64,000 nt of DNA from Asparagopsis taxiformis. Lineage: Eukaryota; Rhodophyta; Florideophyceae; Bonnemaisoniales; Bonnemaisoniaceae. Numbering within the stretch: position 1 is the stretch's first letter; every line of letters starts with the position of its first letter. The notes under the pieces were generated by a model. It saw nothing but the letters and a program-made list of their open reading frames with translations. It was not told where the DNA came from and did not search any database. A program made the position numbers and the translations under genes. Location of the stretch: assembly GCA_030407315.1 (NCBI GenBank), contig JALQPE010001699.1, forward strand, positions 1 to 64,000, read 5' to 3'. Of this stretch, positions 20,186 to 44,708 are shown in pieces.

Positions 20186-20545
20186 AATGTAGTAAATTTA
20201 CTGCCTGAGGCAGTAAAAATCACTGCCTGAGCAATGTAGTGCCTGAGGCAGTAAAATTACTATTTTAATTTTTTCAGTTCTAGTGCCGCAGGCAGTAAAA
20301 TACAAAATTTCCTGGCAGTACAGTATGTAGCAGAATGCAGTACTGTACGATAGCAAATTCTAGTAATTTTTGCTGGTACCACAGGGCAGTAGTGGAATGC
20401 AGTGATTTTTGATGATTTCTGCAATGGAATGTACTGCCGTACAGTACTGCCCTGGCAAATGACCTGGCATTAGAATCAGGCAGTAAAATATACTGGCTCC
20501 GGCAGTGAATTGTACTGCCTGCAAGTACTGCCTTGATAGTAATTG
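20186..20545. repeat. Left subterminal array of CTGCC/GGCAG palindromes
   Basis: Repeated TACTGCC and GGCAGTA words, with the full TACTGCCTGAGGCAGTA-type palindrome at about 20,199-20,215, another CTGAGGCAGTAAAA near 20,244, and many half sites. Subterminal repeat arrays of this kind bind the transposase in CMC/EnSpm elements, which supports the end assignment. Confidence 0.75.
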
Positions 20546-20854
20546 GTGATTGGTATTTTCTGAGATTCAATGTTGCAATAGTTGTCCAGGATAGGGTTGT
20601 ACAATGTGTTCGCATGTGAGTTCAAGTAGAGAAGAGAGGAAACTATTCTGAAGCTACTAGTAGTGAGAAGTGTAGAGGATGCATGGTCACATGGAAATGA
20701 CCGTTACAAAAAAGGTAGGAGAAAATCGGTCGTTTTCCGAGGATATGAGTAGAGTAGTTGGCATTATTTGTTACTATTGCTAGCATTCTCGTTGCAGGAA
20801 AATCGTCTGGAGTGACACTTTGCGATTGGAACGAGAGGCGAAGTTTGACGGAAG

Positions 20855-22378: not shown

Positions 22379-22689
22379 TAATGGAAGCGGATAAGTAAAG
22401 TTTCATAACCTTTGAAGTAAAATAATTACGACGAGGCAGACTGAGGAGAAATAGAAACCTTTAGATATGAAACTGTCTAGGATATGAGTGGAAAAGGTGC
22501 ACCCTAGCATGCTACGTACTACATGGTGTACTGGAAACAATAGCTATCGTTCTTATTTTTCAGCTCACTCTGCGACTAGAAAGCGTCATGTCTACTACGG
22601 TTAAGAGTTTTACCCTGTCATTGAGCACGCCTCTAGTAGCTTCGGGGCCTGTGCAGTCCCATCCAATGCCGTAGCTCCACCTGGCAGAG

Positions 22690-22880
22690 TAGTGCGGAAA
22701 ATAATACCGGGTATTATTTTGAGGAATATTTTGCCAAGTGGAGGGCAATCATTCGTACCGACTACAGGCGATCCCTGGACGAAACCTAAGAATAATACCC
22801 GGTATTATTTTCAGGGATATTTTGCCAAGTGGAGGGCAATCATTGTTACAGAATGCAGACAGTCCCTGGACGAAGGAACA
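22690..22880. repeat. Palindrome array A (2 units)
   Basis: Core palindromes at 22,701-22,717 (ATAATACCGGGTATTAT) and 22,792-22,808 (ATAATACCCGGTATTAT). Each is followed by ATATTTTGCCAAGTGGAGGG and then CAATCATT. Unit length is about 91 bp. It lies between the 3' ends of two convergent genes. Confidence 0.85.
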
Positions 22881-22985
22881 GGCCAGAAAGATACGGAGCA
22901 TGTATCGATGGATACCATCGACTTAATCGAGGTTGACTAATTCTGAACAGTCTTGTAGACCCATCTAGAAAAGATAGAAAACGTT

Positions 22986-24374
22986 TTACTCGGAGGCGAC
23001 ATCGTGTACGGTAGGATGAGGTGCATCGACAGGGGAACTATTCTGTCCAACGATAACGTCATGTCCAATTGTGTCTAGCTCGCTGCAGATGGTGTGTCCA
23101 CTGAAAATGCATGCTGGGAGGTTCAAGTATGCAGTTCCCAACACAACATTCTTGAGAACGCGCTCGAAAGTTCCATATGGACGAGGGCCTTGAACAGGTT
23201 TCCAGGTCAGTGAGAACGAGTTGGCCAGTTTGAAATTTTTGCTGTCCGGCAGCTCAAAGTTCTCCTGCATTTCTCGACTTGAGAGGAAGCGAGCTTCCAA
23301 AGGATACGAATAGCTGCAATTGACATAGTCGTATTCATCAGATTCTCGAGTAAGAACGACAGTACTACTCATGTTTTCAGATCTCCTGTATAAAGAGGAA
23401 CCAACAAGAACAGCCTTTGTAGATGGAATAAAATCTTCTGAAGCACTGTCTGCTAGAGTTCCCAAAACTCTAATGACAGAAGACCCAGAATCGTGTCGTG
23501 TTTTCTTCCACTTGAGGATAGTAGAGTTCGTGCATGTAGACATGGAAGGAGCTAAAGTATTGCAGAGGTCATAGTATGTTCCAAAGTGGATCGATAGCTC
23601 TTTATCTCTCCCAGTTGAAATTCGAACCGCCTCGACGCTCGGCAGGAAAATTGTGTTTGGGTTGTTCTTCTCTTCGCATAGCCTGGAAAGTTGTAAAAAC
23701 TGTTCAAGCGAGCAATCTGCTCTTGCCGTCACATAGTCTTGCACCAAGGAGCTCACTTCCCGGCCTGTTTCAGACTTCGTGATTTTGGAGGACAGGGGTT
23801 TGTCCAGTTTTAAGCCAACTCTCTGGAACAGGTAGTCGCACACAATGTTTCCGAAGATGGGTCCAGTAGCGCTTGATGAACCGCGACAGTTGAGAATCTG
23901 CCTTTCGAGGTAGGATACCTTTTGAAACAGCTTGGATATGTCCTCATTGATGTTAGGACCAGGAGGACTCTCATCGCAAACTAAGCGCGGCTCGGACTTG
24001 GATCGACTCAACAAGTTTTGTTTGCAGTCTTTTTTATGGAAACTGTCTTCACCCGCAGACGAGATCGTCTGCTCTAGTGCTAGTTGCTCTCCAAACCTCC
24101 AACGTAGCATGTTTCCAGAGTCAATGTCCAGCAGCGAATTGTTCTTGAATAATTTTGCTGTAGAGACTGACTGGTCGAAACCGTGTTCAGATTGATATTG
24201 CAGCGTAACAAACAAGTTTCCAGTCAAACGATGTTCTCCGGACGCGTCCGGCTTGGCAGTACTCAAAACTTTGGCGCCCCACCAAACCTTTTTCTGTTTC
24301 CTTCCTCTCGTTCGTAAACTCCATTCTACTTCAATGACTGATCCTTCGGAGACAAAGTCTGTTGGGTCTTGCAT
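22986..24374 (-). CDS. Unrecognised 462-residue protein of the 24-kb element
   Basis: An intact frame from the ATG at 24,374 (MQDPTDFVSEG). The first 100 residues look like a small beta-barrel: VIEVEWSLR, KKVWWGAKVL, FVTLQYQSEHGFD, LLDIDSGNMLRWR. The spacing of Trp and hydrophobic strands resembles Tudor or chromo-barrel readers, but I cannot assign it firmly. A short coiled coil (ISKLFQKVSYLERQIL) follows. The last 200 residues are beta-rich and unrecognised. It converges on the 20,855 gene, sharing palindrome array A as 3' region, and diverges from the methyltransferase gene, with which it would share the 24,375-25,105 promoter region. If the barrel is real, it might read marks set by the element's own enzymes. 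Confidence 0.6.
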   Translation of the reverse strand: MQDPTDFVSEGSVIEVEWSLRTRGRKQKKVWWGAKVLSTAKPDASGEHRLTGNLFVTLQYQSEHGFDQSVSTAKLFKNNSLLDIDSGNMLRWRFGEQLALEQTISSAGEDSFHKKDCKQNLLSRSKSEPRLVCDESPPGPNINEDISKLFQKVSYLERQILNCRGSSSATGPIFGNIVCDYLFQRVGLKLDKPLSSKITKSETGREVSSLVQDYVTARADCSLEQFLQLSRLCEEKNNPNTIFLPSVEAVRISTGRDKELSIHFGTYYDLCNTLAPSMSTCTNSTILKWKKTRHDSGSSVIRVLGTLADSASEDFIPSTKAVLVGSSLYRRSENMSSTVVLTRESDEYDYVNCSYSYPLEARFLSSREMQENFELPDSKNFKLANSFSLTWKPVQGPRPYGTFERVLKNVVLGTAYLNLPACIFSGHTICSELDTIGHDVIVGQNSSPVDAPHPTVHDVASE

Positions 24375-24791
24375 AATGGGTATTCCCAGGAAAAGAATGG
24401 AAGAGGTATCGACTGAGGAAACAGGAAAGATGACGAAACTGTACAGCTTGTATCCGTGTGGAATGATAGAGAGAAAATTGGTAGGTTACTATTTTTATAC
24501 TTGCATAACTCGTAACGGTTATAAATTACTAACACCTGTCCCAAGCGACATGGGAGACCAACATCGTGATGATCATCTCTCTTGAACATTCATCACCATA
24601 TAATAAAGATCTTATTCCGAGCTGCTCGAAGCCATTACCAGTAGATTGGGTGTATTTTTCGCTGTGGCAATATAACGGAACCTAGACGTGTATGTATAAA
24701 CAGACGCAGGGATCGAGAATGATGCAGTGAAATCAATGTGTATATTTATATACTGGTTGTAAGAACGAGTCTACAAGTTCGAACAGAAGAT

Positions 24792-24863
24792 GAAGTCCTC
24801 TCAAGAGATTGGTTTTGAAATCTCCGATGGCAGATTTCAAACTCAATCTCTCGAGGGGACTTC
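24792..24863. repeat. 72-bp hairpin upstream of the methyltransferase-SET gene
   Basis: GAAGTCCTCTCAAGAGATTG...TTGAAATCT pairs with AGATTTCAA...CAATCTCTCGAGGGGACTTC around an 8-base loop, with few mismatches. It lies about 240 bp before the ATG at 25,106, in the shared upstream region of two divergent genes (24,375-25,105). The rest of that region is A/T-rich, with a TATATTTATATAC near 24,742. A binding site or RNA hairpin in the leader is possible. Confidence 0.75.
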
Positions 24864-25105
24864 AAATTCAAAACAAAAATGGAAATGTCCGTTGGCGAAA
24901 TAATTGTATTGAAAGGCCGCCGAAGAACCTAATTATTCCTCATTACGTACCCTACCTAGCCAAAGTATACCTGAAAATATTCAGGTTAACTCTTTAACTG
25001 TGCATTTAAGGTTTATCAAGATTGTTGCCGAAGGTTTTTAACGGCAGGTAGGAGAGAAGATTGTTTTCTGCTGGTGGCTGATTGAGGTGAAGAATCTATT
25101 TCTCG

Positions 25106-28100
25106 ATGGCCTCTGAGAAGAGAAATCCAGCGAGCACCTCTGGGCGTCCCCTTCATGGTGAGCGGCGCAATGGGCTATTGCACATCGACCCATTCAAGAT
25201 CAAAAGATATGTCGAGATTCGAGAAATCGACTACAGGCACGTCGATGTTATTGCCGAGAGCATTCAGGTTTACGGCTACAATGACAACAACCCAATTACC
25301 GGTCGGATCATTGCCGGTGAGGTAGAGGTGCTGGATGGTGCGCATCGTTCGAAAGCTGTAATCAAGCTCATAGAGAACGGTGAGCTTCCGCGTGATTTCA
25401 CTGTTCCTATGATTGAAGAAGAAGTCGACATATCTCCGATTACAAGTGCTGCTTTCCTTCTAGATAGTGTGAAAGCATCAAACGCGAACGATATGGCATC
25501 CAGGCAGAAGAGGATGACTTTCATTGAGTACCTGAATCTTACTTTGGATCTTAGAGATGGGTACTGGGAGCGAAACGCAGGTGAAAAACAAGGAAGCTCA
25601 AGCATGGTTACAATTCGCGACGTGAATATGCCATCCATTAGGCGATGGCTCGCCGTGGGATCTCAGCGCGAAGATTTGGCAGAAACTGTGCTGAGGCAGC
25701 CACAGTACGAGAGTTGCTTGTCAATTCTTCGTGTGCTTCGCCCCTACAGTCGCATAGAAGAACCCAATCCCAAAATGGTTCGCTGTCTGTGGCAGTTGTT
25801 CTGTATTGTATGGGGAAGGCCGGTGGAAGTTCAGAACAATTTTGCGATGAAGGAGTTTCCCACATCTCTCGAGAAAAGAGCATCAGTCGGCGAGCAGTTG
25901 TTTGGGATGTCTACAAGTGGTGAAATTGCTTCTCCATTGTGTCGCGAAGTCCTCACCTGTGAGTATTTTCGTTCTGGAAGAAGTGCACAGGGTAGAACAT
26001 TAACAGAAGAAGACAAAGTATTTGGAAGGCTGATGTTTATGATTTCATTTGTGCACATTGCCCTCACTAGACGCAGAAATGCACCCATTCGCCGGGGTAG
26101 GAAGCGTCGTAGAACTGGGAGGGATACAGAGACTTCTACATTCGCCCCTTTCCAGCGCACAAGAGCAAACGGAGAGTCTGTGGGTGTCGTTTTGGAAAGG
26201 GTCATGTCTGCCTGGGATACAACAGCGATGATTCTGGGCTTCGAAAGCGCCTACATGATGTGTCGCCCATACATGGTTTTCGACTCTGAGAAATTCCAAT
26301 TCATCTGTCTTGCTAATCGTACTGACGGGTGGGCACATCCTGACCACTACTCAGATCTTCTGCTTCCGTCCCCGGTAGTGAAACTCCGCGAGAATGCAGG
26401 TTATCCAGGCACTTTGGATATCTCTGTTGATGCAAGGTTGAGGTCTTTGACAGAAGCCGTACTAGTGTCTGTGTATGACTGTATGATAGGCATTGATGTA
26501 TTCGGATCAAGTACGAACCAGATGGAAGGGCTGCGCACTAAATTTTTCCATCAGCCTGACCGGTTCGGATTGAACGCCTTCATCGAAGCAAGAATAGAAC
26601 AATCCATCGCATTGGATGGTCACGAAAGACTCAAGGTATGGAAGAACTGGAACCGTGAAATGCGTGTGAAGCCAGTTGATGTCTGCGACTTGAAAATTCT
26701 CTACGAGACTGAACAGCGCAACGCAGCATCCAGATCTCTTTCTCGAGAAAGAGATCGTCTTGAGTCGAATGAATCAATGCAGCACAGCACTCGCCGTTTA
26801 GGTACAGGTGGAAGGAAACCTACCAATGACTCTGGATCCCAGTATACATCCAGCATGGATGGGAGGGCTTCGTCCGCAATGGACACGGTTATGCAAGATG
26901 TTGCGGAGGATACACCGTCAGCGGAGGCAGTGGGTGAGGAAGAGGGGGTACCGGATCATATTGTGCAATTGAAAAAGGTCATGAAGAGATTTTGCGTGGC
27001 TTACAACTGTACAGCCTCGAGGTTAGTGCACCAGGTTAACACTGATTCCATTGGCATGCTTTCAGGGAATACTATTGATGGACAAGCACAACTTGTGCTC
27101 ACCGATCCACCCTTCAACACGCGGAGGGAGAAAGGCAAGACCAATTCAGACTATGATGACATCAATAGCGCACAAATGTTTCGTACTGGAAAGGACATTT
27201 CTCGAATGCTGCGCCCTGGAGGACATGCCCTGATATTTTCCAGTATCAAACAGTTGGTTGGGTGGGGAGAAGCTCTTCAAAATGCAGAAAGCGGGGAACA
27301 ATCCATGCGTACAGACGATGTTCCTCTCATTCTAAGCCGTCGTCCCTACGTATTCATCCAAAACCCAATGAACAAATCGTGTTCATTACACAACATTCAC
27401 GAGTTTGTTGTGCACAGTTTCAAACGTGGGATGGGAGCTGCCGCGTTTGAAATGGTTGATTATTCTTTGCATAACCGTGACCTTTCACGACATCCAGGGT
27501 ACGTGAACGCAATCGACAACTGCCCAAAGCTCGGACCTGGTGAGTCATTGAACTTCGAAGACAAAAGGCTACGTGCGGAGCAGAAGCCTCTGTCCATACT
27601 TCGAGAGCTTATTTCAAGGTTTTCAAAGCCAGGAGACATTGTGGTAGATCTATTCTCCGGAACGTATTCTACTGCAATAGCTTGCATGACAATGAGAGAT
27701 GGTCTGTATCGCAAGTTTATTGGATGTGAAAAAGACGCCACATGCCATGGATCAGCTCAGCCGTTGTTGCTGGATTGCTTTGTTAGGCAAGGTCGAGATG
27801 GAGTTTTTGGGGAGGCAACCAAAAATGACATATCGAGTATTCTCGCTAACAAAGAATGGAATTACTCGATAAGGAGCAATGTAGGAAGTGAAAGACTTCG
27901 ACATCGAAGTGATGCGCCTGATGGATTCCCGTCGGTATCTTCACTACCACTGCATATGTTGCGATTTGTCTCCTCTGTTGCGCGGGATCAAAGCATGCTC
28001 CGAAGACTTGCCGAAGTCCCAATGAATGAATGGGGCGTAGAAGATTTAGGCAAGGTTTTCTCCGTTGACCCTGAGATGATGCTTGCAGTAGATGCCTCCT

Positions 28101-28615
28101 TTCACAACGTTATTGTTGCTGCATCGACAGTTCGAGAGGGAGGATTGGGGGTTTTTGCCGCAGAAGATTTAGAGAGGGGCTCTGTTGTTGGATGGTATAA
28201 TGGGACAATTTTATACGGGAAGATTGGGGAGAATGAACCGCAACGCAGTCGCTTGTACGGACCGGACGGGTTCGGTTGTACTGGTGAAAGATTCCAAAAC
28301 TTCAACATGGAGATGGAGACCAGTGTCATCGGAGAAGAAGCACCGGTCGACAAGATATATCTTGTACCAGCGGAATACAATGTCTGCAGCTACCTCAACG
28401 ACAGTAGGACCATTGACGGAATGGAGAGAGTTGCAAATGTGCAACGCAGAAAAAATGCAGAGTTCCGAGTTCACAAAGACGTCAATCCTACTTGCGACTT
28501 CAAGTATGCAGTAGCAAAACCTGATCTCATCCTAGCGCAGGTTGTAGTAGATGTTCGAGCTGGGGAAGAGATATTCGTTGACTATGGATCGCGCTACTGG
28601 ACTGCAGAGAAGTAG
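25106..28615 (+). CDS. ParB-like / beta-class DNA methyltransferase / SET fusion
   Basis: 1169 residues, intact, from the ATG at 25,106. (1) A ParB/sulfiredoxin-like domain, about residues 25-100, with the signature LDGAHRSKA (DGAHR at 77-81). (2) A long helical region to about 560, homologous to parts of the two dioxygenase proteins and of the 57,871 protein. (3) An amino-methyltransferase: motif IV DPPFNTRR at 667-670, then LRPGGHALIF, and motif I VVDLFSGTYS at 846-855. The order IV before I marks the beta class, which methylates adenine N6 or cytosine N4 in DNA. (4) A SET domain from about 1000: GLGVFAAEDLERGSVVGWY, YLNDSR, ANVQRRKNAEF and RAGEEIFVDYG. The usual N-H-S-C-x-P-N motif is altered. 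AATAAA follows at 28,660. I infer a nuclear enzyme that marks the element's DNA and perhaps adjacent histones, with the ParB-like head as a candidate for site recognition. Confidence 0.8.
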   Translation: MASEKRNPASTSGRPLHGERRNGLLHIDPFKIKRYVEIREIDYRHVDVIAESIQVYGYNDNNPITGRIIAGEVEVLDGAHRSKAVIKLIENGELPRDFTVPMIEEEVDISPITSAAFLLDSVKASNANDMASRQKRMTFIEYLNLTLDLRDGYWERNAGEKQGSSSMVTIRDVNMPSIRRWLAVGSQREDLAETVLRQPQYESCLSILRVLRPYSRIEEPNPKMVRCLWQLFCIVWGRPVEVQNNFAMKEFPTSLEKRASVGEQLFGMSTSGEIASPLCREVLTCEYFRSGRSAQGRTLTEEDKVFGRLMFMISFVHIALTRRRNAPIRRGRKRRRTGRDTETSTFAPFQRTRANGESVGVVLERVMSAWDTTAMILGFESAYMMCRPYMVFDSEKFQFICLANRTDGWAHPDHYSDLLLPSPVVKLRENAGYPGTLDISVDARLRSLTEAVLVSVYDCMIGIDVFGSSTNQMEGLRTKFFHQPDRFGLNAFIEARIEQSIALDGHERLKVWKNWNREMRVKPVDVCDLKILYETEQRNAASRSLSRERDRLESNESMQHSTRRLGTGGRKPTNDSGSQYTSSMDGRASSAMDTVMQDVAEDTPSAEAVGEEEGVPDHIVQLKKVMKRFCVAYNCTASRLVHQVNTDSIGMLSGNTIDGQAQLVLTDPPFNTRREKGKTNSDYDDINSAQMFRTGKDISRMLRPGGHALIFSSIKQLVGWGEALQNAESGEQSMRTDDVPLILSRRPYVFIQNPMNKSCSLHNIHEFVVHSFKRGMGAAAFEMVDYSLHNRDLSRHPGYVNAIDNCPKLGPGESLNFEDKRLRAEQKPLSILRELISRFSKPGDIVVDLFSGTYSTAIACMTMRDGLYRKFIGCEKDATCHGSAQPLLLDCFVRQGRDGVFGEATKNDISSILANKEWNYSIRSNVGSERLRHRSDAPDGFPSVSSLPLHMLRFVSSVARDQSMLRRLAEVPMNEWGVEDLGKVFSVDPEMMLAVDASFHNVIVAASTVREGGLGVFAAEDLERGSVVGWYNGTILYGKIGENEPQRSRLYGPDGFGCTGERFQNFNMEMETSVIGEEAPVDKIYLVPAEYNVCSYLNDSRTIDGMERVANVQRRKNAEFRVHKDVNPTCDFKYAVAKPDLILAQVVVDVRAGEEIFVDYGSRYWTAEK

Positions 28616-28659
28616 GACAGTTTAGGCGTCCAATTACAGATATCAAGAGTACCATCAGC

Positions 28660-28665
28660 AATAAA
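28660..28665 (+). promoter_or_regulatory. Polyadenylation signal AATAAA
   Basis: Lies 45 bases after the stop of the ParB-like methyltransferase-SET gene and before palindrome array B. Confidence 0.5.
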
Positions 28666-28764
28666 AAGTCTTGCATCTGAACTCGTACAACGTTGTAGTA
28701 CTACAATCTACCTGAGCGATAATAACAGACTTTCATTTGCTGAGCGGTGCCAGTCAGCCCACGC

Positions 28765-29330
28765 CCAATGATAGTGCTGCACCTGGGCTTTGCCATGCCA
28801 AAATAATACCGGGTATTATTTTGGGTGTGGCCAGCCCAAGTGCAGCTCTGCCATTGGCTGTCATGAACGCAGCGGCAGGAATTGCTGCACCTGGGCTTTG
28901 CCATGCCAAAATAATACCGGGTATTATTTTGGGTGTGGCCAGCCCAAGTGCAGCTCTGCCATTGGCTGTCATGAACGCAGCGGCAGCCAATGGAATTGCT
29001 GCACCTGGCTTTGCCATGCCAAAATAATACCGGGTATTATTGGGTGTGGCCAGCCCAAGCATTGGCTGTCATGAACAGCGGCAGCCAATGGAATTGCTGC
29101 ACCTGGTTGCCATGCCAATTATTGGGTGTGGCCAGCCCAAGTGCAGCATTGGCTGTCATGAACGCAGCGGCAGCCAATGGAATTGCTGCACCTGGCTTTG
29201 CCATGCCAATAATACCGGGTATTATGGGTGTGGCCAGCCCAAGTGCAGCTATTTGGCTGTCATGAACGCAGCGGCAGCCAATAATTGCTGCACCTGGGCT
29301 TTGCCATGCCAAAATATATTATAGCCCAAG
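28765..29330. repeat. Palindrome array B (4 intact cores and 2 decayed)
   Basis: Cores ATAATACCGGGTATTAT at 28,803-28,819, 28,911-28,927, 29,024-29,040 and 29,209-29,225; eroded cores near 29,117 and 29,314. Each core sits in a larger imperfect palindrome (GCACCTGGGCTTTGCCATGC on one side, TGGCCAGCCCAAGTGC on the other). It alternates with a second palindrome around GCCATTGGCTG...CAGCCAATGG. Unit about 110 bp. It lies between two convergent genes: the methyltransferase and the first dioxygenase. Confidence 0.9.
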
Positions 29331-29702
29331 TGCAAATTTGCTGCAGGTTTGCATGCCAATTGATTTGGCTGCCAGGTTTGCATCTCAACTATAGTTAGTA
29401 TACTAAGAAGAACAATTCAAGACCTTGGTTACTCGAGTGATGTGGAATTGTGGCAGTCTTGCAAAACTGTGCCATGCATGTAGGAAAGGAAAAGAGATCA
29501 GTCTGTACGATGTAGGGTGTAGAAGCTATGCGGGGTGAGAGGTAGAGGAACTCTAATAGTGCAGTAGACTGACCGTGCTAATATTTTCAAAGTCATGAAT
29601 AGGAGTAGATTTAGTTGTGGTAAAGGAAGTATACTACCGAAGCTAGCTTAGGATTGGCAGATGCTGCCTGTAGAGGGAGAGGCAAAGCAGTATTCTTGCA
29701 GA
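29331..29702. other. Short intergenic
   Basis: No gene; eroded remnants of array B near the start, then unique A/T-rich DNA that would be the 3' region of the dioxygenase gene. Confidence 0.4.
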
Positions 29703-32636
29703 TTATCGCGCACTAGGTGCATCCCAGTAGTTGACTGTTTCGATAGCATCCGCCAATTCTTCTTCGTCACTTAAAAGGTAGAGATGAGAACGAACCGGAA
29801 GACCATATGTTAGGCGATTTTCCGCTGAACTACTGAATCCTTTGCCTCCATGGTAGAAGTCACCACGACCGATGAAGAGAGAATACGGTGGCACGTAGAT
29901 GTCCATAACAGGCGTCTTGTACTTCTCAGCGTCTGCACGCGTCAAACAGACGTGGCTGAAATACGCTCCACGAAGCCAGAACCCATCAGCCGCGCTTGCC
30001 ATCAGAAAGTACGATCTTCCAGGTGGGAAATCGGAATCATTGATGACCACCGGTAGGTCTGTGTGCAAGTCTTGATCTGGAGCACCATCAGAGGTCAGCA
30101 AAAGACGTAAACCGGTTTTAGGAAAGGCCACAGGCTCATGGATTCCTAGGCCCAAGTACATTAGCTCGGCACAGATTGCTTTGCCGACCTCGAGAATCAT
30201 CTTGTTCTTGAATTGATGTTCATCCATCTGCTCGAGATCGTCGCAAATCTTCTTCCTTGAGATAGAGAACCTTCCCAAACGAGAGGCCTGTTGCTCTGCT
30301 GTTACCTCACCCTTGTTTCGAATCTGATGCCAGGGATCATTGGAACTGTCTTCAGCAGAAGAATGAACAGGTTTGAACTTCTGGGCGTAGAACGTGAACA
30401 GTTCATGTGCTGCGTTGCCCACAGTCGAAGAACGGAAGATACCACTGAGTACATGGGCACCCAAGAGATTGAGAGTTGACCTAGCTGTTGCAAAGAACTT
30501 CTCTGCACAGCAAGCTGGACCACTGCACGCTATACAATTCATATCGGCAGCAGCTGCACTCAAAATCTCCTGTCGGATTGTTTCGTACAGCTTGCTGTCG
30601 ATATAGTACTTGACCCTAGAGTCTGACGGTATGGTGTTCGGGAGAATATCCATAATCCGTTCATCGACTACCCTGTCGGGGAGGGGATTTTCCTGCTCAT
30701 CGCTGAACAATGGAATCTCCTCGGTTGAACGTTTAACCGTACGGTTAACTTCCAGTCTTCTGCGCTTCGGAAGGGGCTCTTCGGACTCTTCTTCTACCTC
30801 CGACTCTGCCTGACTGTCGCCGCCAACCCGTAGACTCTCCGTTCTCTGCCGTTTCGACCTGCGAAGTGTCTCGACTGGCTCATTCACCGCAAGCGGTGGT
30901 GCATTGAGAGGGAGACGGAGGAGAACAGATCCCAATTGCTTCTCAGAACCTGCCACAGTGGCATCAGGGGTTCCTTGAGCCTGCTCAACTGCAGGAACGG
31001 AAGTGGCAGGAGCAGGAGGGGTAGCAGGAGGGGTGGAAGGGGCGGGAACGGAAGCGGCAGGAGGAGGGGTAGCAGGAGGGGTGGAAGGGGCGGGAACGGA
31101 AGTGGCAGGAGGAGGAGGGGTAGTAGGAGCAGGAGTAGAAGGAGTAGAAGGGGTAGAAGGGGTAGAAGGGGTAGAATGAGCACGAGGAGCAGGAGGGGTA
31201 GAAGGAGCAGGAGGGGTAGAAGGGGCAGGAGGAGTAGGACCAGAACGGGTAGAAGGGGTAGAAGGCTCATCTGATTGGGGCGTAGATGGCTTCGGCGCAT
31301 CTTCAGATGGCTGTTCATTGTGAACAATGACCCTTTGGTCTTCTTCCATGTCCACAACGCCCGTGGAAAAGCGAAGCTGCTCATACATTTCGTCGGAGAC
31401 GAGAGCATGCTTCGTACCGCTGTTGTCGTCGGTATTGAAGTGCAGGAGGGTCTCCGCGATACTGTTCGCAATAACAGTCTCCTTTCCTGACCCAGTGTTC
31501 TTGAGCTCGGAGTAGAAATGTTCGAGCGGAGGCTCCATCATTTTGTGAGCAGCAACCGGCTCGGACATCTTGAACACTTCAATCAAAACACGAACGAAAG
31601 GATTACCAAATCCTCTTGTCGTCCTACTCAACTGACGCAGATCTCGCATGCGTGTCCAGAGAGCTGTTATGAGCAAGATGAACCTTTGCTGATACTCCGA
31701 GCCGCGACGGAAGTCTGCCATGAAAACGAGATCCATGTTGCAGCCATACATGTCTACGGACTGCTTGAAGACATCGTCGTTGATGTCACGGCCTTCTTTA
31801 ACGGCCCTTTCCTGTTCCGCAGCGAGAATTTCCTTGGTGAACATGCTCGGTACGGAACTCCAGAACTCAAGCGCTTTGTTGTTCACAGTCCGGAAGCCTT
31901 TCGCAGCAGTCACGTGCTTGTTGATGGCTTGGTAGCCCAGTTTCGATATCGACAACTGGCTGTCCATGATGACCTGAATGCACTTCCGATTCGGTTCACC
32001 CAGCATGTCCTTGGTCGTGAGCAGTTGGACCACAGAACACACTCGGTCTGCCAAAGAAACAAGGGCAACATCATGTGTGAGTGTGTTTGCTTGAATGGAC
32101 AGCCCGAGTACTTCAAAAGGTGTGAAGTACTCATCGGAAACTTCTTCTGTCCCTGGGCGCCTGATCAAAGCCACATCGATGTTCCTGAATGAAGCAGCAT
32201 ACGGATGTTGCCCTTCCGGGTCTTCACGAATGCACTTCTGGAGAGCCGCAACGCGATGGCCACCATCGATGTAGAACGTTTGAAGGGTGGGGGTTGTGCT
32301 GCCTTCACTGGGAAGGAGCATTTTGCAGGCAAGGATTCGGGAGATTGAGGAGGTGAATCCTTCCCTCAGGAACTTCTCCTTCAGCTCAAGCACTCTCCCT
32401 TCCCTAATATGACGAGAGAATAGGGGGGGTCTGTGCAAATCCAAGGGAGACAGCCTGTGGTCAGCTTTGGGACAGTCTGACAACTGAACCTCGGCGGTGA
32501 CAGAGTTATCGTGACCAGGGCTGCGAGAAGGGGCGCGAGAGCGAGAAGGGGCGCGAGAGCGAGCGGAGGCCCGACCGCGAGTCGAAGCGCGAGCAGGGGC
32601 GGGGGCAGAGGGTTTGGAGCGAGTGCGAGGAGCCAT
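29703..32636 (-). CDS. ParB-like / 2OG-Fe(II) dioxygenase fusion, copy 1
   Basis: 977 residues from the ATG at 32,636. A basic, Ser/Arg-rich start (RSRAPSRSRAPSRSP) is followed by a ParB-like domain with YIDGGHRVAAL (DGGHR at 124-128), then a helical region shared with copy 2 (KGFRTVNNKALEFWSSVP), a Pro/Thr/Ser/Ala linker at about 470-570, and nuclear signals (RRSKRQR, PKRRRLE). The C-terminal domain fits a 2-oxoglutarate- and iron-dependent dioxygenase: HTD at 858-860 (iron His and Asp), the distal His929 in GDFYHGGKG, and Arg949 in LPVRSHLYL for the co-substrate. YFLMASAADGFWLRG and YSHVCL-like strands are conserved with copy 2. Such folds include TET/JBP enzymes that oxidise DNA bases. With a ParB-like head beside a DNA methyltransferase, action on DNA is the best guess, but RNA or protein substrates are not excluded. 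Confidence 0.75.
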   Translation of the reverse strand: MAPRTRSKPSAPAPARASTRGRASARSRAPSRSRAPSRSPGHDNSVTAEVQLSDCPKADHRLSPLDLHRPPLFSRHIREGRVLELKEKFLREGFTSSISRILACKMLLPSEGSTTPTLQTFYIDGGHRVAALQKCIREDPEGQHPYAASFRNIDVALIRRPGTEEVSDEYFTPFEVLGLSIQANTLTHDVALVSLADRVCSVVQLLTTKDMLGEPNRKCIQVIMDSQLSISKLGYQAINKHVTAAKGFRTVNNKALEFWSSVPSMFTKEILAAEQERAVKEGRDINDDVFKQSVDMYGCNMDLVFMADFRRGSEYQQRFILLITALWTRMRDLRQLSRTTRGFGNPFVRVLIEVFKMSEPVAAHKMMEPPLEHFYSELKNTGSGKETVIANSIAETLLHFNTDDNSGTKHALVSDEMYEQLRFSTGVVDMEEDQRVIVHNEQPSEDAPKPSTPQSDEPSTPSTRSGPTPPAPSTPPAPSTPPAPRAHSTPSTPSTPSTPSTPAPTTPPPPATSVPAPSTPPATPPPAASVPAPSTPPATPPAPATSVPAVEQAQGTPDATVAGSEKQLGSVLLRLPLNAPPLAVNEPVETLRRSKRQRTESLRVGGDSQAESEVEEESEEPLPKRRRLEVNRTVKRSTEEIPLFSDEQENPLPDRVVDERIMDILPNTIPSDSRVKYYIDSKLYETIRQEILSAAAADMNCIACSGPACCAEKFFATARSTLNLLGAHVLSGIFRSSTVGNAAHELFTFYAQKFKPVHSSAEDSSNDPWHQIRNKGEVTAEQQASRLGRFSISRKKICDDLEQMDEHQFKNKMILEVGKAICAELMYLGLGIHEPVAFPKTGLRLLLTSDGAPDQDLHTDLPVVINDSDFPPGRSYFLMASAADGFWLRGAYFSHVCLTRADAEKYKTPVMDIYVPPYSLFIGRGDFYHGGKGFSSSAENRLTYGLPVRSHLYLLSDEEELADAIETVNYWDAPSAR
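30990..31265. repeat. Minisatellite coding the Pro/Thr/Ser linker
   Basis: Tandem GGAGGGGTAGAAGGGGCAGG-like units within the dioxygenase copy 1 gene, reading on the coding strand as TPSTPSTPSTP and APSTPPATPP repeats. It keeps the frame. It probably varies in length between individuals. Confidence 0.8.
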
Positions 32637-33064
32637 TGAAGGATGAGGGAAAGCAGGAATGGAGAGAAGCTTGATTGAGTGTACGACCCCGATAACGACG
32701 ATACAGAGACGATTAAGATAGATTTATTTCGCTACTGCAGTCTGATAAAGGATCAAACGTGAACAATCCGTTTCAACTCTGATTTCAATTTTTTGTTTAT
32801 TTCTAGACCACTTGACTCAGATCAAGAGTAATACTCGAAATTCAGTTAATTTCTGCGGCCAAATACAATCGCTATACGACGAGTTCATACTCAAAGTGGC
32901 TAAACAGGTACGAGTTGGTCATGGTGATTACCCCAAAACCACTCAAGTAATAACTACATAATGCTGAAGTCACATACTTCCCAGCATTTTGCACCAACTC
33001 GTGGAGCTGATGCGTACATACCAAATGCGTCTGTATTCAACATGAACCACGAATAAGTGGGCTT
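32637..33064. other. Promoter-side intergenic of dioxygenase copy 1
   Basis: No gene. A/T-rich, with nothing I can assign beyond being upstream of the ATG at 32,636. Confidence 0.4.
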
Positions 33065-33069
33065 CGGCC

Positions 33070-33690
33070 AATGAGTGCACTGCACCTGGCTTGAGAAACT
33101 AGGAATAATACCCGGTATTATTTTGGCCTCCCAAAAGCCAGGTGCACCAACGCCATTGGCCGGGTATGGCTACCACGGCCAATGGGGTTGGTGCACTTGG
33201 TCTATACCGACCCAAAATAATACCCGGTATTATTTTGGCCTCCCAAAAGCCAGGTGCACCAACGCCATTGGCCGGTGGTAACAACCTCGGCCAATGGGGT
33301 TGGTGCACTTGGTCTATACCGACCCAAAATAATACCGGGTATTATTTTGGCCTCCCAAAAGCCAGGTGCACCAACGCCATTGGCCGGTGGTAGTTTGGAC
33401 AACCTCGGCCAATGGGGTTGGTGCACTTGGTCTATACCGACCCAAAATAATACCGGGTATTATTTTGGCCTCCCAAAAGCCAGGTGCACCAACGCCATTG
33501 GCCGTGGTATCCGGCACCTCGGCCAATGGGGTTGGTGCACTTGGTCTATACCGACCCAAAATAATACCGGTATTATTTTGGCCTCCCAAAAGCCAGGTGC
33601 ACCAACGCCATTGGCTGAGGTTATCCGGAGTACCCCAGGCAATGGGGTTGGTGCACTTGGTCTACACCCACCCAACTTTATACCCGGCCA
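33070..33690. repeat. Palindrome array C (5 cores)
   Basis: Cores at 33,105-33,121 and 33,217-33,233 (ATAATACCCGGTATTAT), 33,329-33,345 and 33,447-33,463 (ATAATACCGGGTATTAT), 33,561-33,576 (ATAATACCGGTATTAT, 16 bp), and a ruined one near 33,675. Units of 112-118 bp, with GGTGCACTTGG and CCAGGTGCACC facing each other and an alternating CCATTGGCCG...CGGCCAATGG palindrome. It lies between the two dioxygenase genes. Confidence 0.9.
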
Positions 33691-33998
33691 GACTCCTGTT
33701 CTCAGGAACTGAAAATTTTACCGGGGATAGTGAACGATGTAATATAATACCAGGTTTTACTATCTGCTATCGTTTCTTGCATCTACTGAAGAGGTTTAGA
33801 ATTTGCAGCTCCTGTAGGTAGAGCTTTCTGTGGAGAATAGCTTTCTGCATGTGGTGTTTGTTACATTTGTGAAGTTGATCTGACTATATAAAGAATCCAT
33901 GCAGTATCTCTTTTATCATGTTCTATTGGAATTGTGTTTATTACTCTACGGATTCATACCCAACTAAGGCTTCAACACGGCTGGACAGATGCCCTTCA

Positions 33999-36900
33999 TC
34001 ACTTCAATTTCGAATTGCCCTCCCAATGTCCAACGACATATTCTCCTTCTTCACTTTGATGCTGCTCAGTTTTGAGGAATATGTGAGATCGGATCGGGAA
34101 CTTGTATTGAAGACCCTTATTGCTCTCAAATCCTTCCTCGTGGTGATAAACATCCCCTCGGCAGACAAGAACAGAATATGGTGGTACTTCACACCTCTTC
34201 ATTGGAACTCTGTATAACTCTCTGTTGGGATGGGATAAACAGACATGACTGTAGGGTGCAAGCACGAGGCCGAATCCATCTGCGCCGCTTGACATCATGA
34301 AGTAGGATGGCGGAGAAGGGGGACTGTTAACTTCATCGATTCCCACTTCATAGTCTGTATGTCCAGCACGAGGTTTAGTCCGCTCTCCAGTCAGCACTAA
34401 AGTAGTTCCAGTGCTGGGGAAGGCCATCGGGTCCTTCCCACTAGTCCTCAATTCCAAACCTTCCGCACAAATACCTAGACCGAGCTCAACAATCATCTTC
34501 TTCCGATAGAGATTATTATTGTTATCCTCGAGGTCATCACATAAGCTCTTCCGCTTTGTTATAAAGATTCCTCTGCCCTTCTCACCTTCTTCATCAGAGT
34601 TTTTCCCATCCATCATAGCCATGCACCACGGTGTCCAGTCCGGATCTCTGCGGGTGTCACCGGATTCAGAGTTCTTCTTGGCATCCTCGAGACGTTCCTC
34701 AAACAACGCAGAAAAATGAAGGAGCAGTTCGTGGATCGCATCTGCAGTAGTAGAAGACTTGAATATTCCGTCCAGAATTGTAAACCCAACCAAGTCTATT
34801 TCATTTCGTTTCTCTCGGAAATAAGCCCTCGAGAGAAACTCAGCGGAAACATTTTGTGCCGAATAGGCACTCGCTGCTGCTTCAGCGACCTCGGCTCGAA
34901 GCGTATCGACCAGTTTCCCATTCACATAGTATTTCATTCGACTGTCGGGATGAATGATAACAGGCAGTTTCGCTTCTATACCTTCCTCCACATCTTTGTC
35001 AGGGACATCATTTTGTTGCCTGTCCGAATACTGACCTCCTTGAACCGCGTGGACTGCAGCGTCTTTGCCGGATTGCAAATTTGCGTCTTCACGCATCTTT
35101 TGCTTCTTCTTCTGCCGCGGCCTGCTGGTATCCTCTCCCACCAGGTCAATAACCTCTTGAGGGGTGACATCCACCAATTTCCGTTTGGATCGTAGAATCA
35201 TTGGCGGCGTCTCCGTATTCCTCGGCTTTGCCTTTAAGGGCACGAAACCACTGCTGTGCTTGGCTTTCATCAACTTCCTAGGCGTAGAACTGGTAACAGG
35301 TGTTTCCGTGTCCTCCAGCTCAGGTAAAACAGGTAGGCCGACATCCGCTGTAGATAACATAGCGTCTCCAGTGCCATCACCCTGATTTCGTACACCTTTC
35401 ATCGGGTCCTCCGTTGTCCTTCCAGAAGAATGTTCGGGACATTCTTCGCGGACATCTTTCGTTCCAGACCCATCGCTCTTCCTAGATTCAGGACCTCCTT
35501 CACCATCTCGACCAGTTCTTGGATGACCAACTGACATATTCGCCGGCGACTTTCCACCCTGCTCTGGTCTGAGCGTGGCACTTCCGGCTGCCACTGGGCT
35601 AGGTGATTGTTGCAGGTCATTTTCATCACCGTGGTCATTTCTTCCTCGATTTGCACCAGTTGGTTCAAGCTCTTGAGTTCCTACGTTCTTCTGCAACACA
35701 TCCCCAACTTCACAATCTCCAGGTTTCGAAGAATTGTTCTCGGTAGGCGCAGTAGGCACTGCGCGGTCCGTTGTAACCTGCTTTGCGCTTTCGGAATCTG
35801 CCGCTTTCCCTGTCGCCTCTTCACCAACCTGTGTTGCAGCACCGACCTCAGCGTTAACACGATCCGATATTTCCAGACTGCCCTGTGTCTGCTGTTGGGT
35901 AAGTACATTTGGACTCTGTACCACGTCCGAGCGATCAATGGCAGCATTTGAAGTATCACCATACGATGCGGATTGTTGTCGTGGTTGAGGTGCAGTATTC
36001 CCTTCCAAGGATTTTCGCCTAGTCCGCCTTTCCTGCACACCTATTTCAGGCGCGACGGAATGGTCGAGAGAGTCATCCGATAGAATTGGGCCGTTGAAAA
36101 CCACATAACGGATTTCTTTCATCATAGACCGCGTCAATGCTGCACGTATACCTCTCCCAGTTGGTGCGTCGGAAGGATAGAAATCTTTGAGGACAGTCAA
36201 AATGCGATATCGTATGGTTTTTCGTGTTCGTCCACCTGGCTCCGGTACTTCATGTAACTTCCTGAAACATGGATGAGGTGAGGAATGCCAGGAGTTTTCT
36301 TTCCGTACAGCTTTCTCAAGTATGTCATATATTTCACACATGCTGTAGCACCACTTTTGCGCGCATGTCTTTAGACTTATACCACCATCTCCTTTCCTAC
36401 GTTTCCACATCGTCCACATTGCAGTGAGCTCTAGAATGACAAGTTTGGTGTCCACCGAAGCTTTTCGAAACGCAGAAGCGAATAGGACGTCCACAGTGCA
36501 TCCCTGCATATTCTTCGAGTCTGGCGGACTAGTTTCAGTTGCAAATCGACTTGGGATAGCTGACCAATGTTCGAACGCCGGGTTATTTACGTCTCCGAAG
36601 CCCTGCGCAATCGAAACGTACTTCATCATGATTCCTTCCTGACAACCTGGAATGACCTTGTTCTCGACTACAACTTTTGTGCACACATTTACCTTCGCCT
36701 TCATCAAGCCCTTCATCATCATGAACTTCATGACCGTACAGACGTGGTCAGCAATAGAAACTTCTATCACGTCATGAGTCTTTTCGTTCAGCTTCTGCGA
36801 TATTCGCATCACTTCAAGAGGATGAAACATTTCACGGGTTCCAGGTGGTCGGATGAAGTCAACGCTAATGCTCCTCAGTCTCCATCGATCAGCAACTGTC

Positions 36901-37523
36901 GGTTTGTTTTCCACAATCGACTGCAAAGCGCTGATACGATGACCTCCATCAATGCACTGCAGTTTCTTCCGTCCGTCTGACCCCATTGTTTCACAGATGG
37001 TCATTCGGGTGCCAGTTTCCAGAAACCCCTCGGTAGATATTTTGCTGACCAGATCGCGCACTCTGGCCTCCTGCACAAGACGAGAAGTTGATTCCGGTTT
37101 GGCAACATCTAGCGGATTGATCATTTTAGGTTCAGTCCTGCATTCGACAATGTTGATGTCAATCCCCATCACAGACTCTTCTGATGCTTCCATGCCAGCA
37201 GGACTCCCCTCGCCTTCACGGACGTTAGACCTCTCCCTGTTTTTCGATTTCACCGTCCCAGGAGTAGATGGAAAGCGTAGAGTGTTTTTCCCAGATGGTG
37301 ATATATCGCCAAGGGTTTTTGCTGCCTCTATCATGGCAGCGTCTGCTCCCTGAATGGGTGTCTGGCTATCTGCCGTCTCCCTTCCCGCTGCAGACGGAGC
37401 CCCTCCATCAGCAGAACCTCCGGAGGGTGTTTTATCACCGCCTACCGTCGTTGCAAGTCTCTCTGCAACGCTTTCGACGGTATCCTTTGGTTCCGCAGCG
37501 CGCTCAGTGTCGCTTCCGGCCAT
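33999..37523 (-). CDS. ParB-like / 2OG-Fe(II) dioxygenase fusion, copy 2
   Basis: 1174 residues from the ATG at 37,523, intact. Same plan as copy 1: a disordered start, ParB-like CIDGGHRISAL (DGGHR at 192-196) and a helical region with IAQGFGDVNNPAFEHWSAIP. A long acidic and Ser-rich linker follows, with nuclear signals (RPRQKKKQKMRE). The C-terminal dioxygenase domain has HTD at 1055-1057, the distal His1127 in GDVYHHEEG and Arg1145 in FPIRSHIFL. The two copies are clearly homologous at both ends, but their linkers differ, so the duplication is old. A reverse-strand AATAAA lies at 33,937-33,942, about 57 bases past the stop. Both copies keep the iron ligands, so both may be active, perhaps on different states of the same base. 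Confidence 0.75.
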   Translation of the reverse strand: MAGSDTERAAEPKDTVESVAERLATTVGGDKTPSGGSADGGAPSAAGRETADSQTPIQGADAAMIEAAKTLGDISPSGKNTLRFPSTPGTVKSKNRERSNVREGEGSPAGMEASEESVMGIDINIVECRTEPKMINPLDVAKPESTSRLVQEARVRDLVSKISTEGFLETGTRMTICETMGSDGRKKLQCIDGGHRISALQSIVENKPTVADRWRLRSISVDFIRPPGTREMFHPLEVMRISQKLNEKTHDVIEVSIADHVCTVMKFMMMKGLMKAKVNVCTKVVVENKVIPGCQEGIMMKYVSIAQGFGDVNNPAFEHWSAIPSRFATETSPPDSKNMQGCTVDVLFASAFRKASVDTKLVILELTAMWTMWKRRKGDGGISLKTCAQKWCYSMCEIYDILEKAVRKENSWHSSPHPCFRKLHEVPEPGGRTRKTIRYRILTVLKDFYPSDAPTGRGIRAALTRSMMKEIRYVVFNGPILSDDSLDHSVAPEIGVQERRTRRKSLEGNTAPQPRQQSASYGDTSNAAIDRSDVVQSPNVLTQQQTQGSLEISDRVNAEVGAATQVGEEATGKAADSESAKQVTTDRAVPTAPTENNSSKPGDCEVGDVLQKNVGTQELEPTGANRGRNDHGDENDLQQSPSPVAAGSATLRPEQGGKSPANMSVGHPRTGRDGEGGPESRKSDGSGTKDVREECPEHSSGRTTEDPMKGVRNQGDGTGDAMLSTADVGLPVLPELEDTETPVTSSTPRKLMKAKHSSGFVPLKAKPRNTETPPMILRSKRKLVDVTPQEVIDLVGEDTSRPRQKKKQKMREDANLQSGKDAAVHAVQGGQYSDRQQNDVPDKDVEEGIEAKLPVIIHPDSRMKYYVNGKLVDTLRAEVAEAAASAYSAQNVSAEFLSRAYFREKRNEIDLVGFTILDGIFKSSTTADAIHELLLHFSALFEERLEDAKKNSESGDTRRDPDWTPWCMAMMDGKNSDEEGEKGRGIFITKRKSLCDDLEDNNNNLYRKKMIVELGLGICAEGLELRTSGKDPMAFPSTGTTLVLTGERTKPRAGHTDYEVGIDEVNSPPSPPSYFMMSSGADGFGLVLAPYSHVCLSHPNRELYRVPMKRCEVPPYSVLVCRGDVYHHEEGFESNKGLQYKFPIRSHIFLKTEQHQSEEGEYVVGHWEGNSKLK

Positions 37524-37774
37524 TGCAAAGATTTGGACGCGTAGAGAAGCCGTTCAGGATAACAAAGATACCTTTTCTCTCCGACTACACGATCAAGAGA
37601 TATTCCTCTTTCAAGGTGGTATTTGGCGGGAAACGATCTCCCTACACGTCTAAACGTGAAATATCAGTTATTGATTCACCTTCCACGCGCTCCAATTGTA
37701 TTCGGCCATCTGTCATTCCTCGATGAAGGACTTCCCACACACAATTCCTTCGTTCCCAAAACCATCCCATTGCC

Positions 37775-38080
37775 ATGAATCATAGTACTCCACTTGTCAC
37801 TGGAGCCAAAAAACTATACCGGGTATTATTTTCCACTTCATTGGCCAGGTGCCGGCTCCCCATTGGCCAGCAGACAGCCATCAGTCACAATACTCCACTT
37901 GTCACTGGAGCCAGAAAACTATACCGGGTATTATTTTCCACTGCATTGGCCAGGTGCCGGCTCCCCATTGGCCAGCAGACAGCCATCAGTCACAATACTC
38001 CACTTGTCACTGGAGCCAGAAAACTATACCGGGTATTATTTTCCACTTCATTGGCCAGGTGCCAGCTCTCCATTGGATTA
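37775..38080. repeat. Palindrome array D (3 units)
   Basis: Three units of about 106 bp with core CTATACCGGGTATTAT at 37,814, 37,919 and 38,024. The left half carries a CTA change compared with the other arrays. Flanks are CACTGGAGCCA and CATTGGCCAGGTGCCGGCTC. It lies between dioxygenase copy 2 and the transposase. Confidence 0.9.
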
Positions 38081-38335
38081 TGCGAACTCAACTTTGTGGA
38101 ACTAGGAGTCCTGCAACTCGCGGCTCCATCTCTAGTACCAATGGCGTCATACGTACGTAAGTGCGTACGCTCTTCGCAAAACACACTTTATTTGTGCGCA
38201 TGGAACAAAATCCCACTCTATTCTTCAAACGACATGTACAAATTTTGTATAGCATTTGTTGGAAGACTTGATCAGGACTGCTGCTAAATGAATTACGAAA
38301 GTTTACTGATGTATTAAACACTGTGCTGGAACACT

Positions 38336-44626: not shown

Positions 44627-44708
44627 CGATTTCAGACACAGTAGTGTAGAACCTTGTACCCTCGGGTAAGTCTCTTTGAGAGAAATTTTCCTTCGCATCA
44701 TCTTCACG

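What the first reader, a model, noticed from the sequence alone, without database searches (positions are those of the whole stretch)
25106..37523. A ParB-headed DNA methyltransferase-SET and two ParB-headed dioxygenases in one element: a possible self-targeted writer/oxidiser system
Seen: three neighbouring proteins carry a D-G-x-H-R ParB-like domain (DGAHR, DGGHR, DGGHR) and a related helical region. One then has a beta-class DNA methyltransferase plus SET, the other two a 2OG-Fe(II) dioxygenase domain with HTD, distal His and Arg. Known: 2OG-Fe folds of the TET/JBP type oxidise methylated bases, beta-class enzymes methylate A-N6 or C-N4, and ParB domains bind palindromic sites and spread. 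Inference: the element marks and unmarks its own DNA, using a shared targeting head and repeated palindromes as nucleation sites.
Basis: partly seen in the sequence, partly recalled or inferred. Interest (0 to 1): 0.92.

Follow-up and report, generated by a model that had tools for sequence, protein, structure and literature searches.

The report
Giant algal transposon with DNA-marking genes
The three proteins are genes of a 24.5-kilobase jumping gene, present in many near-identical copies in what is probably a red alga, that carries its own predicted DNA methylase joined to a histone methylase plus two oxygenase-like proteins with the same kind of DNA-addressing head, so a mobile element may set its own epigenetic state.

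Summary
The proteins exist as described, but belong to a larger object: a giant CACTA/EnSpm-type DNA transposon (window 20163-44646, 24.5 kb) in a phycobilisome-bearing, probably red algal, genome. It has CACTACTG/CAGTAGTG termini, 2-bp target duplications in 12 of 13 copies tested (the window copy is the exception), 182 exact left and 251 right ends, and at least 40 intact methylase genes. P1 is a ParB-like head + beta-class N6/N4 DNA methylase + SET. P2 and P3 are paralogues with a ParB-like head and a C-terminal domain carrying HxD...H...R. No profile or fold confirmed an oxygenase, but a third, diverged relative in a second amplified element, which also has a methylase-SET, keeps all four residues. 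The palindrome occurs 2345 times genome-wide; in the window it forms arrays 190-490 bp downstream of all six long genes, which fits 3'-end elements as well as ParB sites. ParB-methylase proteins in algal transposons are already in print (PMC12477816); the headed oxygenase-like partners and arrays were in nothing I read, but no search aimed at them and two key sources were not held. Self-marking or anti-silencing is the likeliest role, untested. New variant of a known kind.

The parts
20163..44646 (.). Giant CACTA-type DNA transposon (24,484 bp), termini CACTACTG...CAGTAGTG
   Evidence: Other copies match from this left end (5 of 5 with that end held) and three of six to this right end; ends and TSDs; end counts
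20855..22378 (+). 507-aa protein, coiled-coil look at the N-terminus (by eye), unknown function; intact also in a 12-kb derivative
   Evidence: (only sub-cut-off matches to UBR4 and DUF16)
22986..24374 (-). 462-aa protein of unknown function
   Evidence: no Pfam
25106..28615 (+). P1: ParB-like head + beta-class DNA methylase + SET, 1169 aa
25139..25423 (+). P1 ParB-like head (residues about 12-106, DGAHR)
   Evidence: PHROG 1033 E 6.3e-5 at residues 38-131; hhalign with phage ParB heads, 0 of 60 shuffles
27089..27742 (+). P1 N6/N4 DNA methylase domain (residues 662-879; DPPF)
28142..28588 (+). P1 SET domain (residues 1013-1161)
29703..32636 (-). P2: ParB-like head + low-complexity linker + C-terminal oxygenase-like domain, 977 aa
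29706..30719 (-). P2 C-terminal domain (H858xD860, H929, R949)
33999..37523 (-). P3: paralogue of P2, 1174 aa
34002..35033 (-). P3 C-terminal domain (H1055xD1057, H1127, R1145)
38336..42037 (-). CMC-type transposase-like gene; in the window copy interrupted by one in-frame stop; open across that stretch in 5 of 5 other copies compared
   Evidence: 1206-aa open frame in L061; C(2)C and H(3)H motifs read by eye
22651..22874 (.). Palindrome array 1 (2 units), 3' of the 507-aa and 462-aa genes
28753..29316 (.). Palindrome array 2 (4 palindrome cores), 3' of P1 and P2
33057..33690 (.). Palindrome array 3 (5 palindrome cores), 3' of P3, 5' of P2
37772..38086 (.). Palindrome array 4 (3 units, one arm altered), 3' of the transposase-like gene, 5' of P3
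57871..61074 (+). Second methylase-SET (1067 aa, no ParB head), part of a different amplified element

Best explanation
It is a giant, recently active CACTA-type DNA transposon whose accessory genes form an epigenetic module aimed at the element itself. Shown: transposon ends, target duplications, copy number, methylase and SET domains, ParB-like heads, the HxD...H...R pattern. Inferred: the head (with the helical region after it) brings each enzyme to element DNA; P1 methylates adenine (N4-cytosine is possible) and a histone lysine there; P2/P3 oxidise a mark, most simply the host's silencing 5mC, so that copies stay readable by the transposase and escape silencing, much as fungal transposons are thought to use TET/JBP (PMC12730594) and as Spm TnpA and VANDAL VANC proteins (recalled) demethylate their own elements. 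Element identity about 0.97; ParB-like heads about 0.9 for P1 and 0.8 for P2/P3; oxygenase chemistry about 0.6; self-targeted anti-silencing about 0.4.
For: Boundaries at the same bases in other copies, 2-bp TSDs in 12 of 12 other copies tested, 182 and 251 exact ends with 0 in the reversed controls, copies 0.14-0.37% different from the window. Pfam methylase and SET; CcrM and vSET best listed folds of their domains. Heads. H, D, H and R are all among the 33 invariant columns of three C-terminal domains, the third 27% identical to P2. The same pair (methylase-SET plus headed oxygenase-like protein) recurs in a second amplified element with a very different transposase-like gene, which suggests that the pair works together.
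Against: No methylation, binding or expression data. The palindromes track gene 3' ends in the window copy and were not found in the part of the second element examined, so they may have nothing to do with the heads. The second element's methylase-SET has no ParB head. C-terminal domains match no known family, and 74 of 100 and 56 of 100 shuffles scored at least as well as their comparison with AlkB and PiuC (48 and 44 of 60). No strong CpG decay among copies: 11 of 40 C/G transitions at CpG.
Confidence: 0.45

Rival explanations
1. The palindrome arrays are transcript 3'-end elements (terminator, hairpin or insulator between genes), not docking sites for the ParB-like heads; the heads find DNA another way or serve in assembly.
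For: In the window copy all six long genes have an array 190-490 bp downstream of the stop, the divergent 5'-5' gap has none; a 114-nt unit folds as one long hairpin, -67.9 kcal/mol, z -9.0.
Against: Array length is very variable between copies (a long run on C19), unusual for a plain terminator; two of the four arrays are also upstream of P2 and P3. A palindrome folds well whatever its role. Gene-by-gene position was measured in one copy only.
Confidence: 0.45
2. The module times transposition or replication rather than escape from silencing: methylation of element DNA licenses or blocks transposase binding, as Dam does for Tn10/IS10 (recalled).
For: Bacterial-type beta-class methylase; subterminal repeats near both ends that a transposase partner could read (families D10 and D11).
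Against: Does not explain the SET domain or the oxygenase-like pair.
Confidence: 0.2
3. P2/P3 C-terminal domains act on protein (histone or other) or are no longer enzymes.
For: No significant similarity to any known DNA oxygenase was found; beta-barrel oxygenases with this residue pattern act on many substrates (recalled).
Against: ParB-like head of the same kind as that of a DNA methylase; all metal and 2OG candidate residues kept across two elements.
Confidence: 0.35
4. The writer represses: SET resembles the viral vSET enzyme, and the element silences host chromatin or its own copies to limit damage.
Against: Fold likeness says nothing of the target lysine; at least 40 near-identical copies suggest recent activity.
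Confidence: 0.2

Closest known systems
[quoted passage not shown] it cites refs 50 and 51, of which 51 is Petroll et al. 2025; neither was held; that ref 50 is Iyer et al. 2011 is recalled)
   Same: A giant algal DNA transposon codes an 1104-aa protein with a ParB-like domain and an N4C/N6A methylase; its authors already suggest binding and modification of its own transposon.
   Different: Passages I read name no SET domain, no ParB-headed oxygenase-like partners and no palindrome arrays; Sola-1 is another superfamily.
Giant EnSpm/CACTA families of Chondrus crispus, 16-20 kb, 4-5 ORFs (Kojima et al. 2013, as cited in PMC6431247, passages read) and giant red algal EnSpm (Petroll et al. 2025, as cited in PMC12477816)
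   Same: Superfamily, host group (if the host is a red alga), oversize with extra ORFs.
   Different: 24.5 kb and six long genes; ORF contents of those families not seen here, so some may be close relatives of this element.
TET/JBP-carrying fungal DNA transposons, EnSpm included (Kojima 2025, PMC12730594; abstract, introduction and passages read)
   Same: DNA transposons, CMC-type among them, carry an oxygenase thought to undo silencing.
   Different: TET/JBP is recognisable there; here the C-terminal domain matches no family and has a ParB-like head and a methylase partner.
HarbingerS and oomycete MuDR transposons with SET genes (cited in PMC12730594, introduction read)
   Same: Transposon-borne SET domain.
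   Different: The sentence read does not mention fusion to a DNA methylase; the original reports were not seen.
Phage ParB-N6_N4 methylase fusions (viral loci L002, L003, L005, L008, L009, L011, L012)
   Same: ParB-like head before a beta-class methylase (Pfam on five of the seven heads, four matching and one of those below the cut-off; L009 and L012 by the DGHQR motif only).
   Different: Frames of 427-553 codons without the SET part (read by eye), prokaryotic viruses.
Bdelloid rotifer N4CMT (PMC8885841, search listing and abstract start only)
   Different: Listed there as a source of an epigenetic mark in rotifer DNA; whether it is ever transposon-borne was not checked.

Membership tests
CACTA/EnSpm (CMC/CMCT) DNA transposon | 5'-CACTA...TAGTG-3' termini | tested here: met
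CACTA/EnSpm (CMC/CMCT) DNA transposon | Short target-site duplication (2 to 5 bp for CMCT, PMC12730594) | tested here: met
   2 bp in 10 of 10 pairs fetched plus 2 of 2; the window copy itself AA/TA, not matching
CACTA/EnSpm (CMC/CMCT) DNA transposon | Transposase with C(2)C and H(3-4)H motifs between second D and last E | tested here: inconclusive
   GDYPA, PCHSC and HKNEH occur in that order in L061, read by eye; catalytic residues not established; no Pfam match
CACTA/EnSpm (CMC/CMCT) DNA transposon | Subterminal repeats at both ends (recalled as typical) | tested here: met
   GGCAGT...ACTGCC-like repeats at 20.2-20.5 kb and 43.5-43.6 kb (family D10)
Beta-class N6/N4 DNA methylase | N6_N4_Mtase profile and fold with DPPF before the SAM motif | tested here: met
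Beta-class N6/N4 DNA methylase | Target base adenine N6 rather than cytosine N4 | not testable with these tools
SET-domain lysine methylase | SET profile, G-x-G and catalytic Tyr | tested here: met
   (G1013, G1015, Y1160 invariant)
SET-domain lysine methylase | Asn-His of the NHxC motif (recalled) | tested here: inconclusive
   N1098 invariant, followed by D in 7 of 8 sequences and G in one; effect on activity unknown
ParB N-terminal domain | Match to ParB_N PF02195 | tested here: inconclusive
   no ParB match for any of five heads, but PHROG ParB-like for three P1-type heads (E 6e-5, 6e-4, 0.014) and 0 of 60 / 0 of 100 shuffles reach the hhalign scores; one of five phage reference heads also has no Pfam match
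ParB N-terminal domain | CTP binding, spreading, palindrome binding | not testable with these tools
   needs protein
2OG-Fe(II) oxygenase | HxD...H metal triad and 2OG-binding Arg | tested here: met
   pattern invariant in three diverged C-terminal domains; spacing HxD to H 71-72 residues against 56 in AlkB. That these residues bind metal and 2OG is inferred
2OG-Fe(II) oxygenase | Double-stranded beta-helix fold or profile match | tested here: inconclusive
   no significant profile match (best relevant a sub-cut-off cupin E 0.22); model too poor; AlkB against PiuC also failed, so the hhalign test had no power
TET/JBP | TET/JBP profile | tested here: inconclusive
   no TET/JBP match in the Pfam scans of the C-terminal domains; a miss at this divergence does not exclude it

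The most novel reading that the evidence does not exclude
A self-contained, ParB-addressed epigenetic operating system carried by DNA transposons: one writer that marks both DNA and histone, and matching oxygenase erasers with the same kind of address, passed between unrelated transposon lineages of one alga and nucleated on element-specific palindrome arrays.
Probability: 0.25. Interest if true: 0.88.

Novelty: new variant of a known kind. Interest (0 to 1): 0.64.

Why it matters
Transposons that carry one epigenetic enzyme are known. Here a methylase joined to a SET domain travels with oxygenase-like partners that have the same kind of DNA-addressing head, and a methylase-SET with such a partner occurs again in a second amplified element of the same genome, each with dozens of near-identical copies. 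If the chemistry is real, it is a eukaryotic case of a bacterial-type DNA mark written, and perhaps removed, by the element that bears it. The high copy number and recent spread make it directly testable with native long reads.

Tried and rejected
Protein relatives: P1 gave 7 hits including itself, with only the 7990 candidates sharing most words scored; P2 whole gave none of the 7994 scored, probably because its words were swamped by the low-complexity linker, and its C-terminal part gave none of 2671 candidates. Viral contigs: 12 loci for P1, matching within residues 505-905, none for P2/P3. P1 in the phage collection: 144 records, none covering 80%; the 15 rows listed cover residues 639-890 only. 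PDB sequence profiles: no meaningful match for the heads or C-terminal domains. The P2 structure (pLDDT 31) and the fold search with it are meaningless and I draw nothing from them. In the P1 fold searches the rows shown (50 of 732 Foldseek matches with E up to 10; 50 entries) cover the methylase and, once, the SET; no ParB structure appears among them, which tests nothing because the methylase fills the list. A host cytosine-methylation scar was looked for and not clearly found (11 of 40 C/G transitions at CpG). P1 against P2 and P3 by BLAST: no significant match (best E 0.54 and 0.23). A 2025 survey of eukaryotic 6mA (PMC12695648, passages only) has no mention of red algae, rhodophytes or Chondrus. 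Copy numbers of P2 and of a P0002-like gene were not obtained (unanswered, not resent).

Considered and rejected: a virus or a bacterial island (transposon ends and duplications; phycobilisome genes in the assembly); chance ORFs.
Full report

The ParB-like heads. Pfam sees ParB in none of the five heads. PHROGs sees 'ParB-like partition protein' in the P1 head (E 6.3e-5; a family of unknown function scores better, phrog_4272, E 1.6e-6), in its relative P0002 (E 6.1e-4) and weakly in P0003 (E 0.014), not in P2 or P3. As references I took phage methylases found with P1 that themselves have an N-terminal ParB-like region; Pfam sees ParB_N in four of the five pieces, one of them below its cut-off. 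Profile-profile scores, against targets whose columns were shuffled: P1-type heads against phage heads 29.4 (best of 60 shuffles 16.4), P2/P3 heads against phage heads 23.7 (best 19.9), P1-type against P2/P3 26.8 (best 19.5). With a third head from another element the last two become 28.4 (best of 100: 19.3) and 35.2 (best 22.3; E 7e-5). The alignments of the first three comparisons pair the D-G-x-H-R motifs. The pieces were cut by eye around that motif. I read this as distant relationship; BLAST does not see it.

The C-terminal domains. P2 has HTD at 858, H929 and R949; P3 has HTD at 1055, H1127 and R1145. No library knows them (the third relative has a sub-cut-off cupin match, E 0.22), and no relative was found in the protein collection. 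The structure job failed. The best evidence is a third sequence, from the second element below, 28% identical to P2 over 232 columns (tblastn E 8e-15): among 33 invariant columns of the three are H and D of HxD, the distal H and the R. This supports a metal and 2OG site; it does not show the fold or the substrate. Comparison with AlkB and PiuC gave nothing (48 and 44 of 60 shuffles scored at least as well with two sequences; 74 and 56 of 100 with three), but AlkB against PiuC also gave nothing, so that test has no power.

The element. The window lies in a 141.5-Mb assembly of 3156 contigs. P1 occurs at least 40 times, the window's copy included, with no stop inside and about 100% identity; only 40 candidates were scored, so this is a lower bound. 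In the six other copies whose surroundings I fetched similarity to the window starts at 20162-20163 in the five whose left end was held (the sixth, C142, is cut by its contig end) and runs to about 44646-44650 in three; C388 breaks off at 37370, the contig of C285 ends inside the element, and C291 stops matching at 44099. The ends read CACTACTG...CAGTAGTG. Of 17 left/right pairs that I saw on shared contigs in the listed rows (100 places each of 182 and 251) I fetched 10; all 10 have identical 2-bp flanks, as do two copies. The window copy has AA and TA, the one exception in 13. Genome-wide there are 182 exact left ends and 251 exact right ends, 0 in the reversed controls. Copies differ from the window by 0.14-0.37% of bases over 11.7-22.3 kb aligned; arrays and the P2 linker repeat were left out, only matches of at least 300 columns and 95% identity were used, and P1 was absent in four of six. 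The window's transposase-like gene carries an in-frame stop; 5 of 5 other copies compared are open there and one gives a 1206-aa frame with no Pfam match but with GDYPA, PCHSC and HKNEH (by eye) in the order that Kojima (PMC12730594, passages) gives for CMC-type transposases. Shorter derivatives of about 12 kb share the ends: the one read (C605) keeps the 507-aa gene intact, has a decayed P1 head with stops, a longer palindrome array and unrelated frames that look, untested, like captured host sequence.

The palindromes. ATAATACC(C/G)GGTATTAT occurs at 2345 sites in the assembly, 0 for the reversed pattern; a uniform-base estimate is about 0.02 (my arithmetic). I did not place the sites one by one. 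In the window all 14 copies of the core lie between 22.7 and 38.1 kb, inside the element, in arrays with spacings of 91-118 bp for most units. The units are themselves imperfect palindromes: 34-38 of 50 arm positions match in 6 of 9 units of arrays 2 and 3 (21, 21 and 32 in the others), 32 and 20 in array 1, 21-23 in array 4. Array length varies between copies (a long run on C19). In the window copy each of the six long genes has an array 190 to 490 bp beyond its stop, while the divergent gap between the 462-aa gene and P1 has none. That is what 3'-end elements would do; two arrays are also upstream of P2 and P3. One unit as RNA folds as a single long hairpin (-67.9 kcal/mol, z -9.0). I therefore hold the docking-site idea and the 3'-end idea about level.

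A second element. The window has another methylase-SET (57871-61074, no ParB head), found 43 times, the window included, near-identical and without stops (43 scored, a lower bound). Flanks of four copies, read for genes in two of them, and 3 kb more of one show around it a gene with a ParB-like head (VIDGLHR) and the third C-terminal domain above, a 265-aa and a 501-aa frame, and a transposase-like frame with HPCHRC. In the C1706 copy the headed gene is split over three overlapping frames of one strand, so that copy is broken or has introns; in C430 it is cut by a rearrangement. The two transposase-like proteins align only weakly, at their motif sites (E 0.43). The exact palindrome was not found in the 10 kb examined of each of the four copies. 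I did not reach this element's ends, so calling it a transposon rests on its copy number and transposase-like frame. A methylase-SET with a headed oxygenase-like partner thus recurs in two distinct amplified elements.

Host. The assembly has 13 phycobilisome matches, 11 on one contig (C469), as a red algal plastid would give. A red alga is likely; another phycobilisome bearer or contamination is not excluded.

What is known. [quoted passage not shown] It also cites giant red algal EnSpm elements with several accessory genes (Petroll et al. 2025, not held). Arkhipova and Yushenova (PMC6431247, passages) cite 16-20-kb EnSpm families with 4-5 ORFs in Chondrus. Fungal transposons with TET/JBP and oomycete ones with SET are in PMC12730594. 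The P1 type and the self-marking idea are thus not new. The listings of my ten literature searches and the passages I read show no ParB-headed oxygenase-like partner, no methylase-SET fusion in a transposon and no such palindrome arrays; no search was aimed at the arrays or at a ParB-oxygenase fusion, and the two most relevant sources could not be read, so absence from print is not claimed.

Judgement. The element is as good as certain, the writer domains are sound, the heads are well supported, the oxygenase reading rests on four conserved residues, and the biological role is inference. Anti-silencing self-marking is the most likely role because DNA-methylase, histone-methylase and oxygenase-like parts, some with related heads, sit together twice on selfish DNA that has recently spread.

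Noticed in passing
57871-61074: Second methylase-SET protein without ParB head, at least 43 near-identical copies genome-wide, in a different element with its own headed oxygenase-like gene and transposase-like gene.
   Followed up: partly
44676-51109: Ty3/gypsy-like retroelement (gag, protease, RT, RNase H, integrase) directly next to the right end of the giant transposon.
   Followed up: no
8983-10230: DDE_Tnp_4 transposase frame (PIF/Harbinger type by recall).
   Followed up: no
L059+L060 (C605:8031-20202): 12-kb derivative sharing both ends, intact 507-aa gene, decayed P1 head, longer palindrome array, and frames (333 and 165 aa) that look, by eye, like captured host sequence, possibly a glycosyltransferase.
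   Followed up: partly
54913-56199: Array of about 500-bp tandem repeats; related pieces recur at 57.3 kb and 61.3 kb and in copies of the second element.
   Followed up: no
42871-42948: Nearly perfect (95%) 39-bp inverted repeat without spacer inside the giant transposon, between the transposase-like gene and the right end.
   Followed up: no
20161-20162 and 44647-44648: The window copy lacks a matching target duplication (AA/TA) although 12 of 12 other copies tested have one; mutation or recombination between copies.
   Followed up: partly
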